From Caldilineaceae bacterium (GTDB lineage Bacteria; Chloroflexota; Anaerolineae; Caldilineales; Caldilineaceae), in the NCBI GenBank assembly GCA_019637645.1, contig JAHBVH010000009.1, positions 1-64,000 of the forward strand: 64,000 bases of DNA, given 5' to 3'. The notes beneath the pieces are model-generated. The model saw only the letters and a program-made list of their open reading frames with translations, was not told where the DNA came from and made no database searches. Shown piece after piece: positions 32,848-51,905 of this stretch. Both the position numbers and the translations under genes were made by a program. Each line of letters starts with the position of its first letter. Within the stretch, counting starts at the first letter, position 1.

Positions 32848-33699
32848 CTACTCCACTAAACGAAGCCCTAGCTGATGGGCTAAGGTTGTCGCAGTCTGAA
32901 TCTCTGCGGTTGTCAACGAAGCGGCTAATCTACCTTTGGCATGGGCCGGCGCGAGATATTGGGTGAGCAGACTGACGGTCATGCCCGGTCGCGCGGCGAG
33001 CCAGTGCAAAATCGGTTCGGTGCAGCAGGCAAAATGACCAGGCATGAGCAGATGGCGCACCAACAACTGGCGTCCCTGTTGATAGAGCTGGTCCAACACG
33101 TTGGTCACAATCGGCCAGTAGTTAGGCATGCCCCCAATGCGTTCACCACAGCTTTGCGGCCCAACTGCAGGCCCAAACTTGAGATCCGGCAAATAGAGGT
33201 CAATGGCATCGGCCAAGAGGATCAGCGCGGCATCGGTCAAGTAAAAATTGCTATTAAAGACCACGGGTACCCGCTTCCGGTTACCCAAGCTCTCGAGCGT
33301 CGCCAGCATGAACGGAATGTGCGGTGTTGGATCACCCCCGATCCAACAGATCGAGCGCGCGCCTTGTTGTTGCCGTTCAACCATGCGGGCCGCTAACTGC
33401 TGGGGGCTGACCGCCACGCCATAGGTGGGGTGAAAGGCGAACTTGGCCGCGGTGCAAAAGCGGCAAGTTGCTGTGCAGCCACTAAAGAAGATCGCATGGG
33501 CCGGGCGCAAGCGGCTTTCTTCCCCCAAGTGGAGCATCTCGCTGGCAATATAACTGACGGCCCCTACGCGGCAGACCCCCTGGGCCGTTGCCCGCTGCCC
33601 ACCACAATGGTGGGGACAGAGGTGACAATCAGACAGATGGGCCTGCGCGGCGTGGGTTACGGGCAAGCCAAGTTGCAAGTTGGGTTGTTTAGCGTCCAC
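32848..33699 (-). CDS. PflX-like radical SAM protein
   Basis: This 283-residue protein has two cysteine systems. N-terminal [12 protein letters not shown] with a later GVC resembles the extra Fe-S or zinc motif of PflX/AmmeMemo-type activases. The radical SAM cluster motif is [12 protein letters not shown] (C-x3-C-x2-C). [12 protein letters not shown] matches the SAM-binding GGE-like region. PflX proteins are orphan relatives of pyruvate-formate-lyase activase, with unknown targets. The GTG start has GGAGG 7 nt upstream and overlaps the end of the cysteine-array gene by 11 bp, a sign of translational coupling. That makes the array protein its likely partner or substrate (inference). Confidence 0.87.
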
Positions 33700-35938
33700 G
33701 GCTATTCCTCCGAATCCGCCGTAGCCATTCCTGGAATTCGTGTAGCCATTCGTGGGCGTCTTTTACTTGGGGTGCTTCGGTGGTCGCCGTGGCTGAACCT
33801 GCCCGTGCGCCTTGCCCTTCTATGAACACGACCTGATCTTCGGCTTCGGCGACCACAATGAGGGCTGGCCGCCGTTGTTCTGCTTGGCCCCGATAGAGGA
33901 TATAGCGCAGATTATGCGCGCGTTGCCAAGTATAGTAGGGGGCAAGATTGGCTACGCTAGGGTCGGCAAAGCAGGCTTCCTGGGTGAGATCCACCGCGAT
34001 CCCATCGCTGGCTAGCGTTTGGCAGGTCACACAAAGCCCGCTCTTCCCAACACACCGTTGGCAATAGGCTTGGCTACATTGGCTACAAGTAACCGTGTGT
34101 TGCTCACAATGATAGCGTTCACAGATAGCACAGACGGTGTGGCAGAGTGGGCAAAGGCTCTCGGCACAGTGCAGACAATGGGCGGCATGGCTGTTGCAGA
34201 CCACATGCTCGCAAGTGGCATAGCGCTGGCTATGTTCGGCGCAATAGTCACGACCGCAAAGGTCACACATTGCGCCACACTGGGGACAGTAATTGTGGGC
34301 TATGGCTAGCGGCGTTGATGGGACTGCGCAGGGCTGTAAGGTTGTGGCTAAGGCCCATTGTTGGCAGCTCGGACATTCGACTAAACAGCGATGACAGTAG
34401 GGTGCTTGGTCAATCCGTTCATAAAAACCGACCCCCACTGTGCGTTGGCACGCGGTACAGCTGACCAGACAATTCTGGCAAAAGCGTTGTCCGCTGGCGC
34501 TACAACGTCCAATTTCCGCGCTATATTGGGCACAGCCGGGGCAGCGCAAGGCGCACGCTTCGCAAATATAGGCCGTTTCGCCAGCCTGTACCTTGACCTG
34601 ATCCAGACGCAAATGGCTACGACATTGGCGGACGCCACAGTGGCTGCACAATTCCTGGCAAGCATGACAAACTTCGTCCTTGCAGACGGGGCAAGGGCTG
34701 TTGTGTTCGGCACAAGCGCGTTCACCACAGGCCCAACAGAGCCGTCCACAAGTGTCACAATTTTGTTGTTGGCAGACGGGGCAAGGGGCCACCCCACAAG
34801 TCGTACAGAGAAGTTCTTGACAGGTGCCACATTGATGCAGACAGCGATCACAGATCAGATGGCCGTTGCGGTCGAGCACAACCTGTGTCATTTCCTGGTG
34901 ACAGACGCTACAGCGCGGTCGTTGAAGGGTGCCGTCATACCGATTCCGCATGACTTGAACCGCGACTTCACGCTTGCCGTCGCTGAGGGTGAGGTCTGCC
35001 GCGGCTATGGGAACTTGCAGGACGGCATAGCTGAAGAGTTGGACGCCAACGCGCAGCCGATGATTTTCGACTTCTTCGGCCAATTTACGTTCGAGATCAC
35101 TTTCCAGGGCGCGGCGTTTTTCGCCGGTGGGGTCATGGGCGTCGTAGACTTCCTCGATCTGCTGTTGGTAGTAGGTTATCAGGCGGTTGAGCGTTTTGTA
35201 CAGCCGTGGCAAAATCTCCGCTTCATGGCTGACACAGCGGACATCGGCGTGGTAGATGGCATATTTACGGGCAATCTCGGCCAGGCGCCCAAGATGGGTC
35301 ATGGGGGGTAATCGGCCACTGGTATTGCCCAGGGTCCCTTCTGCTGCGCTCTCGCTGGGAAACGCCTCGGCATCCGCCAATAGCTGGGTGAGTGCGCTTG
35401 GGGCGTCTGGATCTGTCGCGGCGGCGGGTAGATCCATGCGCTCGCCAGCTTCATTGAGCAACACCGAATAAAGTTCCTCGTGCTTGTCATCCGCGCGGTA
35501 GGTAATATGCCAGTGAAAGGCATAGAGATGCTGGGTCTGCTCACTGAGGCGGAGTCCCACGATGCCCGTATTGATGGGGCGCACGGCCCGCATGAGCTCT
35601 TCCCCTGCTTGATGGCGCACCGGTAGCCGTTGATGAGTCACGGCACTGCGGTTGTCAAGATAGGCCAACATTTTGTCAAAGAGGGGACTGCCATGGGCGA
35701 CTAACTGTTGTCCTGTGGGCAGCAGTTCACTAGTGGGTTGTTGAAAATAAAGGGTCAAGGTAGGCTGCCCAAAATAGGTCGCCAACTCGGTGGGCAAATC
35801 GACTTGGAGTGCACCGGTTTTACGGCGGTCCACCGTTTTGACGGTAGCCCCTAGATGGGTAAAAAATTCGCTGGTAAAGGTACGCAGATCCAGCGTACGC
35901 GTTTGTGGTTTAGATAGTTTGGCTGATTTTTTTGCCAT
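33689..35938 (-). CDS. Giant cysteine-array (zinc-ribbon-like) protein
   Basis: This is a 749-residue cytoplasmic protein. The first 340 residues are mixed alpha/beta with a charged helix near 255-300 ([30 protein letters not shown]). Residues about 343-639 hold roughly 56 cysteines in under 300 residues. Most are in CxxC pairs (CSVC, CDRC, CGTC, CPVC, CHAC, CPGC, CHRC, CPQC, CDLC, CLHC, CPLC, CAIC, CSQC) with interspersed histidines. This pattern is like a chain of treble-clef or zinc-ribbon knuckles. The last 110 residues are a separate mixed domain ([17 protein letters not shown]) ending in a basic [12 protein letters not shown] tail. I do not recognise the family. The protein could store metal, scaffold RNA or protein, or be modified by the coupled radical SAM enzyme. 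There is no clear ribosome-binding site at the ATG. Confidence 0.8.
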
Positions 35939-36154
35939 AGCGTTGTTGGAGGGTAAAAGTGCCCCCTTGATTTCCTTTATGATTTGTCAATCTCGCCTGA
36001 GAGAACTTGGCGCTACTGAAACCTGTGTCTTATTATATGTTAAGTAAAATAGAAAAACGAATTTTATGGATGATAGGGCTATCTAGTTGGCTTGAAAGCC
36101 TTGCCCTACTTTTGACCAGCGTGTAGCTGTTTGATGGAAAATAAGGAGTACGCA
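35939..36154. other. Divergent promoter region, no gene
   Basis: These 216 bp separate the cysteine-array gene and the phosphatase gene. It is AT-rich near 36035-36075. Promoters for both directions are expected, but none is clear enough to place. Confidence 0.4.
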
Positions 36155-36772
36155 ATGTCTACCACACTGACTAGCACCGCGCGTCCATTTCCCAACTGCT
36201 ACTGGGTAAAACCAGGTCGTTTATTGGCTGGTGAGTATCCCGGTGCCCGCACCCAACTAGAGGCGCAAGAAAAGCTAGCACTCTTATTGAAGCTCGGCAT
36301 CACCTACTACCTGGATCTAACCGACCCTGCGGACGGTCTAGAACCGTATCGGCACCTGCTGCCGACGGCCTATCCTGGCTATGCCCGTCCGGTCATCTAT
36401 TTGCGTATGGCTATTTGTGACCTGAGTGTGCCGACGCCGCTCCAGATGACCCAAATTTTGGATGAGATCGATATTGCGTTGCGGATTGGTCATAATGTCT
36501 ATGTACATTGTTGGGGGGGCGTCGGGCGGACTGGCACAGTGGTGGGCTGCCACTTTGTTCGGCATGGTATGGGGGGCGACGAAGCCTTGAACGAGGTTGC
36601 GCGCCTTTGGCAAGATGTGGCTAAACGCGACCGCCACCCGCACTCGCCAGAGACGCCTGAGCAGATAGAGATGGTGCGGAGTTGGCGGGAAGACCCCGAG
36701 GGCTTCCGCAAAGCTGCCGAACCCGTGGCACCCCCGTTATCTTTTGTACGCCAATACATGTCTGTACAGTAA
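36155..36772 (+). CDS. Dual-specificity/tyrosine phosphatase-like protein
   Basis: This is about 205 residues from the ATG at 36155, which has AGGAG 7 nt upstream; the in-frame ATG at 36131 lacks one. The P-loop YVHCWGGVGRTGTVVGC carries the HCx5R catalytic signature of cysteine phosphatases. The N-terminal segment NCYWVKPGRLLAGEYPGA is the usual lead-in of bacterial dual-specificity phosphatase-like proteins, and LGITYYLDLTDPADG supplies the general acid Asp region. It probably dephosphorylates a protein or a small phosphomonoester. It lies 80 bp upstream of the purine nucleoside phosphorylase gene on the same strand and may share its transcript. Confidence 0.87.
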   Translation: MSTTLTSTARPFPNCYWVKPGRLLAGEYPGARTQLEAQEKLALLLKLGITYYLDLTDPADGLEPYRHLLPTAYPGYARPVIYLRMAICDLSVPTPLQMTQILDEIDIALRIGHNVYVHCWGGVGRTGTVVGCHFVRHGMGGDEALNEVARLWQDVAKRDRHPHSPETPEQIEMVRSWREDPEGFRKAAEPVAPPLSFVRQYMSVQ

Positions 36773-51576: not shown

Positions 51577-51594
51577 TTGCTTAATTGAAAGAAA

Positions 51595-51905
51595 AAGCGT
51601 TGATGGAGTAGAGTAATCGTTGGAACGTTCTTGCAGCGAGCTTGGGGTGGTGGAAGCCAAGTGAACCCTCTAGCGATGAAAATCCCTCCGGAGCAGTGGT
51701 CTGAACAGGCTTGGCCTCAGTAAGCGCCGCCGGTTTCACAAACCGTTATCCTTGTGGCGAACTCATGCAACAGCGGGCGTAATTCTATATTACGTTGGTT
51801 AGCATGGCTTGGCAGTGAGGTGCTTGTCAATCTTTGATTGGCAGGAACCGGGGTGGTATCGCGGACTTCTGAAGCCCGTCCCCGTTAGGGGGATGGGTTT
51901 TTTTA
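51595..51905 (+). ncRNA. T-box riboswitch, apparent Ile (AUC) specifier
   Basis: The leader shows the parts of a T-box that senses uncharged tRNA. Stem I has an AGTA motif (51612-51615), paired ATCGTT/AGCGAT arms (51616-51621 with 51672-51677) and a GGTGGTGGAAGCC distal region (about 51647-51658). By alignment with the B. subtilis glyQS leader (GAAA-specifier), GAAA (51678-51681) precedes the triplet ATC (51682-51684), which suggests tRNA-Ile. The T-box core GGGGTGGTATCGCGG (51850-51864) holds UGGU for pairing with the tRNA ACCA end. A terminator, CCCGTCCCC/GGGGATGGG (51875-51897) plus seven T residues, follows. It should control alaX and possibly ileS. Confidence 0.88.

What the first reader, a model, noticed from the sequence alone, without database searches (positions are those of the whole stretch)
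33689..35938. Protein with about 56 cysteines in under 300 residues coupled to a PflX-type radical SAM gene
Residues about 343-639 form an unusually dense CxxC array flanked by two ordinary domains. The stop overlaps the start of the PflX-like radical SAM gene by 11 bp, and a U32/RlhA-like gene follows on the same strand. PflX targets are unknown, and U32 proteins often modify RNA. I suggest a cysteine-array scaffold or metal/iron-sulfur carrier that serves, or is modified by, the two enzymes. I do not recognise the array family.
Basis: partly seen in the sequence, partly recalled or inferred. Interest (0 to 1): 0.75.

Follow-up and report, generated by a model that had tools for sequence, protein, structure and literature searches.

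The report
Zinc-array subunit of split SNF2 motor
A bacterial protein packed with 56 cysteines appears to be the detached second half of a DNA-translocating motor related to E. coli RapA, carrying an unusually long string of probable zinc fingers, rather than a partner of the two enzymes encoded next to it.

Summary
In detail: P0001 (minus strand, 33689-35938, 749 aa) has exactly 56 Cys in residues 343-639; 55 lie in columns that are Cys in at least 90% of 99 family sequences. The array is not a stand-alone scaffold. The first ~330 residues fold like the C-terminal part of the SNF2 ATPase RapA: Foldseek's only significant PDB hit (E 2.3e-6), in the register of a weak profile match of distant relatives. 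Distant relatives in other Chloroflexota usually lie directly behind a SNF2 gene that stops after the motor lobes; a single-chain form also exists. In Caldilineales the 56-Cys gene and an unlinked, truncated SNF2 gene occur in the same 23 of 46 genomes, and the gene trees agree. Best reading: the zinc-array-bearing C-terminal subunit of a split RapA/HepA-class SNF2 translocase, acting in trans. The PflX-like neighbour is real but optional: 14 or 15 of 23 genomes, none detected in 7. The U32 neighbour was found in none of the relatives' loci. Metal content and biochemical role are inferred.

The parts
33689..35938 (-). Whole CDS, 749 aa (P0001): split-SNF2 C-terminal subunit with cysteine array
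34913..35938 (-). Residues 1-342: RapA-C-terminal-like beta domain plus long helical hairpin (helices about 213-263 and 273-292)
34022..34912 (-). Residues 343-639: 56-Cys array of CxxC/CxxH knuckles, predicted chain of cross-braced zinc-finger-like modules
33692..34021 (-). Residues 640-749: C-terminal small beta domain and tail
   Evidence: secondary structure and conservation only
32848..33699 (-). PflX-like radical SAM gene (CX3CX2C, PF04055), 11-bp overlap with the array gene; clade-specific accessory

Best explanation
P0001 is the C-terminal half of a SNF2-family translocase of the RapA/HepA class, made as a separate polypeptide. Its residues ~15-332 are the counterpart of the RapA C-terminal region (RapA ~711-968) and should dock on a separately encoded SNF2 motor protein (open frames of 654-729 aa in most Caldilineaceae, two RecA lobes, ending shortly after Helicase_C). 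The array of about 15 probable zinc sites projects from it as an arm that gives the motor its target, most likely nucleic acid, RNA polymerase or another protein on DNA. The complex would then use ATP to shift or strip nucleoprotein, in the way RapA recycles RNA polymerase. SHOWN: conserved array, RapA-like predicted fold, operonic and single-chain relatives, co-occurrence and tree agreement. INFERRED: physical complex, zinc, substrate, and the optional modification by the adjacent radical SAM enzyme.
Confidence: 0.78

Rival explanations
1. One reading: the array is a scaffold or metal/Fe-S carrier for, or a substrate of, the PflX-type radical SAM enzyme (and U32).
For: The radical SAM gene directly follows the array gene in 14 of the 23 array genomes, plus G008 cut by a contig end; it keeps the CX3CX2C motif; in the 46-genome order it was not found without the array at E<=1e-30.
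Against: 7 of 23 array genomes lack the radical SAM gene at that threshold yet keep the cysteine columns in at least 5 of 7; none of the distant relatives' loci L029-L037 shows it; U32 in none of L001-L039. Top structural neighbours of the array are LIM, FYVE and RING-type zinc fingers, none significant in Foldseek.
Confidence: 0.12
2. Dispensable defence-type accessory: the SNF2 partner is a DrmD/BrxHI-like anti-phage helicase and the array is a sensor of foreign nucleic acid.
For: The motor half scores best against DISARM DrmD and BREX BrxHI models.
Against: Scores are below the curated cut-offs (286.7 against 610 for NF038317), and RapA follows not far behind (205.5); none of the three accessory proteins and P0001 hits PADLOC at E<=0.01; the helicase is in 23 of 23 array genomes of the order at 71-87% identity, often with the same neighbour, by eye an M20-type peptidase gene (name recalled), which looks like vertical inheritance. 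Defence genes around the loci were not searched for.
Confidence: 0.1
3. Zinc storage or metal-buffering protein (metallothionein-like) that merely borrowed a RapA-like domain.
For: Very high Cys density.
Against: The array is predicted as ordered structure (10-residue pLDDT means 83-98 except 64 at 541-550), cysteine columns are fixed across 99 sequences, and minimal relatives keep a single ribbon beside the same kind of SNF2 partner.
Confidence: 0.04

Closest known systems
RapA/HepA (RNA polymerase recycling SNF2 ATPase, E. coli; PF12137 RapA_C)
   Same: Predicted fold and register of residues ~14-312 with RapA 711-968; the partner motor half is a SNF2 ATPase that also scores against the RapA model, below its cut-off.
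   Different: Two polypeptides instead of one; no RapA Tudor N-terminal domains found in the partner tested (L054); no PF12137 match in P0001; large cysteine array added.
DISARM DrmD / BREX BrxHI SNF2 helicases
   Same: Closest curated models for the motor half.
   Different: Below equivalog cut-offs; the best-scoring models have 868-1040 positions against about 600-730 aa of the split motor; accessory proteins tested have no PADLOC match.
LIM / FYVE / RING (RBR) cross-braced zinc fingers
   Different: No family HMM match; about 15 sites in a row in a bacterium (my estimate).
PflX-type radical SAM proteins (PflA relatives)
   Same: PF04055 and CX3CX2C.
   Different: Below the cut-offs of every NCBIfam model listed; target unknown.

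Membership tests
RapA (RNAP recycling ATPase) | PF12137 RapA_C in the C-terminal half | tested here: not met
   No hit in P0001 at E<=1; 0 of 46 order genomes at E<=1e-3; E. coli RapA and single-chain L167 do hit
RapA (RNAP recycling ATPase) | Fold of RapA C-terminal region 711-968 | tested here: met
RapA (RNAP recycling ATPase) | Single chain with Tudor-like N-terminal domains before the SNF2 core | tested here: not met
   Partner L054 shows SNF2/helicase/AAA-type domains only, no PF18337/PF18339 at E<=0.01; the array protein is separate
RapA (RNAP recycling ATPase) | Binds RNA polymerase | not testable with these tools
   Needs biochemistry
SNF2 superfamily (partner gene) | PF00176 plus PF00271 | tested here: met
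   L030, L031, L034, L037, L054, L169, L170, the seven split motors tested
DISARM DrmD (partner gene) | NF038317 score above cut-off | tested here: not met
   286.7 bits (L054) against 610
DISARM DrmD (partner gene) | Other DISARM genes alongside | not tested
   No search for DISARM neighbours was run
LIM/FYVE/RING zinc fingers (array) | Family profile match | tested here: not met
   0 Pfam families at E<=1
LIM/FYVE/RING zinc fingers (array) | Cross-braced treble-clef-like fold | tested here: inconclusive
Radical SAM, PflX-type (neighbour) | PF04055 and CX3CX2C cluster motif | tested here: met
Radical SAM, PflX-type (neighbour) | Equivalog match to a known glycyl-radical activase | tested here: not met
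   All NCBIfam hits far below cut-off

The most novel reading that the evidence does not exclude
Bacteria have two-subunit SNF2 remodelers in which targeting is delegated to a detachable, expandable zinc-finger arm: from one ribbon (4 Cys) to 72 Cys, grown in several lineages, and in Caldilineaceae the arm (perhaps a conserved Tyr such as Y472) is modified by a dedicated radical SAM enzyme to tune the motor.
Probability: 0.2. Interest if true: 0.85.

Novelty: new variant of a known kind. Interest (0 to 1): 0.6.

Why it matters
The RapA structures met here are single chains. A split form whose second subunit ranges from one zinc ribbon to an array of about 15 sites or more would show how a bacterial SNF2 motor can acquire a modular targeting arm, as eukaryotic remodelers do with separate subunits (established knowledge). 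It gives a defined, testable partner and a likely function class to a protein family named 'hypothetical protein' wherever a source named it and whose member here matches no Pfam, NCBIfam or PADLOC model, and it offers a concrete candidate substrate for an orphan radical SAM enzyme.

Tried and rejected
Rejected: U32 as a functional partner (no hit in relatives' loci; several of those contigs end early). Radical SAM as obligate partner (not found in 7 of 23 array genomes; of these, G436, G439 and G441 have downstream sequence without it; G435 and G437 have the array near a contig edge, so absence is weaker there). Direct PDB sequence match of P0001: only four hits, E>=0.034, LIM-type and Mdm2. 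PADLOC gave nothing for the array, radical SAM or accessory proteins tested. Radical SAM protein against PDB sequences: none at 1e-3. hhalign of the 56-Cys profile with RapA, and of all three profiles with fused helicase L095, gave nothing; the RapA match appears only through the distant relatives.

Mends made on checking: the first tree set had a wrong ORF for G185 and cut seven accessory rows (G105, G113, G169, G201, G217, G271, G320) at an early CxxC inside the N-domain; one search repeats it with corrected rows (r 0.922 for 42 pairs, 0.826 for 12 clade representatives, 0.849 for the 13 56-Cys pairs, each 0 of 2000 permutations). G404 and G308 were not in the tree set. G037, at first counted as adjacent, is one open frame that joins motor and the last part of an accessory with the middle missing (deletion or assembly); it is set aside, so the count is 29, not 30. 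Neither change alters the odds.

Short relatives P0025, P0121, P0123, P0132 and P0136 look frameshifted by eye and got no weight; P0121, P0123, P0134 and P0136 were rows of A2. Literature, from listings only (titles and abstract starts): no paper with PflX + radical SAM, COG1313, Litorilinea + SNF2 or Snf2 + Chloroflexus + RNA polymerase + RapA; others (15 of 36 listed; 3; 1; 9) listed nothing that reads like a split SNF2 with a zinc array. For PMC8501970 and PMC8666675 passages were seen, not the whole text.

Full report
1. What is there. The protein is encoded on the minus strand, 33689-35938. Residues 343-639 hold exactly 56 cysteines, arranged as CxxC or CxxH knuckles, about every 7-8 residues in much of the stretch. 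Against the other 47 ORFs of the window the expected number is 3.6. A protein search gave 243 proteins at E<=1e-3 (itself included; only the 7997 best candidates were scored, the best 120 listed); those listed are mostly full length, none has a precomputed Pfam domain, and the organism names given are Caldilineaceae, Litorilinea or Chloroflexi. In 99 sequences of at least 650 aa, 57 columns are Cys in at least 90%, and in at least 80% of them His occurs at 412, 442, 569, 578, 584 and 614, among other places. With four ligands per site that suggests about 15 metal sites; this number is my estimate. The window protein lacks one conserved cysteine (position 546, Ile) where it has an insertion.

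3. Relatives sit next to SNF2 motors. In a draw of 400 Chloroflexota genomes the 56-Cys alignment hit 9, eight of them distant relatives in open frames of 602-678 aa. In 8 of the 9 loci L029-L037 the gene directly upstream on the same strand is a ~600-640 aa protein; in L036 a longer reverse frame hid it and the helicase search found it. The four of these tested are SNF2 proteins (SNF2-rel_dom plus Helicase_C) with no further domain. Searching the same 400 with the Caldilineaceae helicase gave 27 genomes (E<=1e-60); searching with a wide accessory alignment (A4, 14 rows) gave 29 (E<=1e-5); 25 are shared. The four accessory-only cases: G105 and G185 have a SNF2 gene directly upstream, G393 is the single-chain form, G308 ends at a contig edge. 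The two helicase-only cases, G169 and G299, have an accessory-like ORF directly behind the helicase, recognised by eye. G037 is one open frame with the motor and only the last part of an accessory and is set aside with G393. So I count 29 genomes with a split accessory: 21 adjacent, 7 unlinked (G047, G056, G083, G091, G115, G123, G294), 1 undecidable. The unlinked ones turned up when I searched the helicase genomes for an accessory elsewhere: proteins of about 330-360 aa with a single CxxC-CxxC ribbon at the end. Cysteines per open frame range from 4 (L113) through 18 (L037) and 45-48 (L018, L034, L154, L157) to 58 here and 72 in G097.

4. The partner of the 56-Cys protein. All 13 genomes first found carry a stand-alone SNF2 gene in an open frame of 654-729 aa (1000 in G005) at 43-48% identity to the distant-type helicase. 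In the order of G001 (46 genomes held) the array gene is in 23 at E<=1e-8 and this helicase in 23 at E<=1e-60, and the sets are identical. This is one clade against its relatives, so common descent inflates it; completeness of these genomes is not given. Eight of the 23 also hold a second helicase at 44-46% identity; in the loci examined for four of them (G001, G002, G004, G436) it lies beside an 18-Cys-type accessory. Trees of helicase and accessory agree: Mantel r 0.92 for 42 pairs, 0.83 for 12 clade representatives, 0.85 for the 13 56-Cys pairs, each 0 of 2000 permutations; exchanging partners in the three genomes with two pairs in the set gives 0.70 (which corrects). Permutation does not remove the species tree. 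Controlling with TopA in 13 genomes leaves a partial r of 0.55 (1 of 2000 permutations; one control gene). Of the 20 genomes asked for TopA, G004, G009 and G435 had no match at 1e-100, and G437, G439, G441 and G442 were left out of the script. The window has no SNF2 gene and its own genome is not held.

5. The neighbours. The radical SAM gene follows the array gene in all 13 loci L001-L013, L001 being cut after 51 aa; these loci were picked by similarity to the query and are therefore biased. In the 46-genome order it is in 14, each time adjacent, plus the cut copy in G008. Seven array genomes lack it at E<=1e-30; in G436, G439 and G441 downstream sequence is present and holds other genes; G445 cannot be judged. 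The 57 cysteine columns conserved with it are each kept in at least 5 of the 7 sequences without it. Eleven other columns separate the groups, Y472 among them (13 of 15 against 0 of 7), but this too is clade-confounded. The U32 gene gave no tblastn hit in any of L001-L039, though contigs end early in several. On the other side a purine nucleoside phosphorylase and an Xer-type recombinase recur near the array gene in many loci, transcribed away from it (Pfam for the recombinase of L003 only).

6. How it most likely works. RapA consists of N-terminal domain, ATPase core, spacer and C-terminal domain, and acts on RNA polymerase (PMC8501970, PMC8666675, passages). Here the motor and the C-terminal part are separate proteins. 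I propose that the N-domain docks on the motor as in RapA and that the array is the targeting arm. The motor half matches curated DrmD and RapA models below cut-off, so the substrate cannot be read from family names. The radical SAM enzyme would be a clade-specific modifier. These last steps are inference.

7. Verdict. Observation confirmed; the enzyme-coupling idea is partly right (radical SAM optional, U32 not). New variant of a known kind: a split RapA/HepA-class SNF2 translocase with an expanded array subunit. No description turned up in the searches named, of which I saw listings only.

Noticed in passing
51591-51886 (+): T-box leader above Rfam's gathering score; downstream genes were not analysed.
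   Followed up: no
P0077, P0098, P0118 (relatives): Relatives of 776-777 aa carry an extra module inserted in the array (alignment A1), apparently an internal duplication: the array grows by modules.
   Followed up: no
P0134 (relative, 535 aa, longest contig 249 kb): Seems to have a naturally shortened array, unlike other short relatives that look frameshifted.
   Followed up: partly
L001-L007, L010, L011 upstream of the array gene: A divergent Xer-type recombinase gene sits beside the array gene (by eye; PF00589 shown for L003 only); in the window a DSP-phosphatase-like gene (36131-36772) is there instead.
   Followed up: partly
L044, L049, L050, L052, L055, L102, L103, L106: Stand-alone helicases show by eye an N-terminal CxxC...CxxC ribbon (GKRCPxC...; CFRCGHR where that part was printed), a possible second zinc element of the motor.
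   Followed up: no
G097 accessory (L143): 72 Cys and 34 knuckles beside its own SNF2 gene: an even larger array, apparently grown independently.
   Followed up: partly
G037 (L121, L159): One open frame runs from the SNF2 motor straight into the last ~60 residues of an accessory with its single ribbon, the middle missing: deletion or assembly.
   Followed up: partly
G442: Probably the species Litorilinea aerophila, inferred from equal contig length (217833) and the name of P0056; that it is a cultured isolate is recalled; a possible laboratory system.
   Followed up: partly
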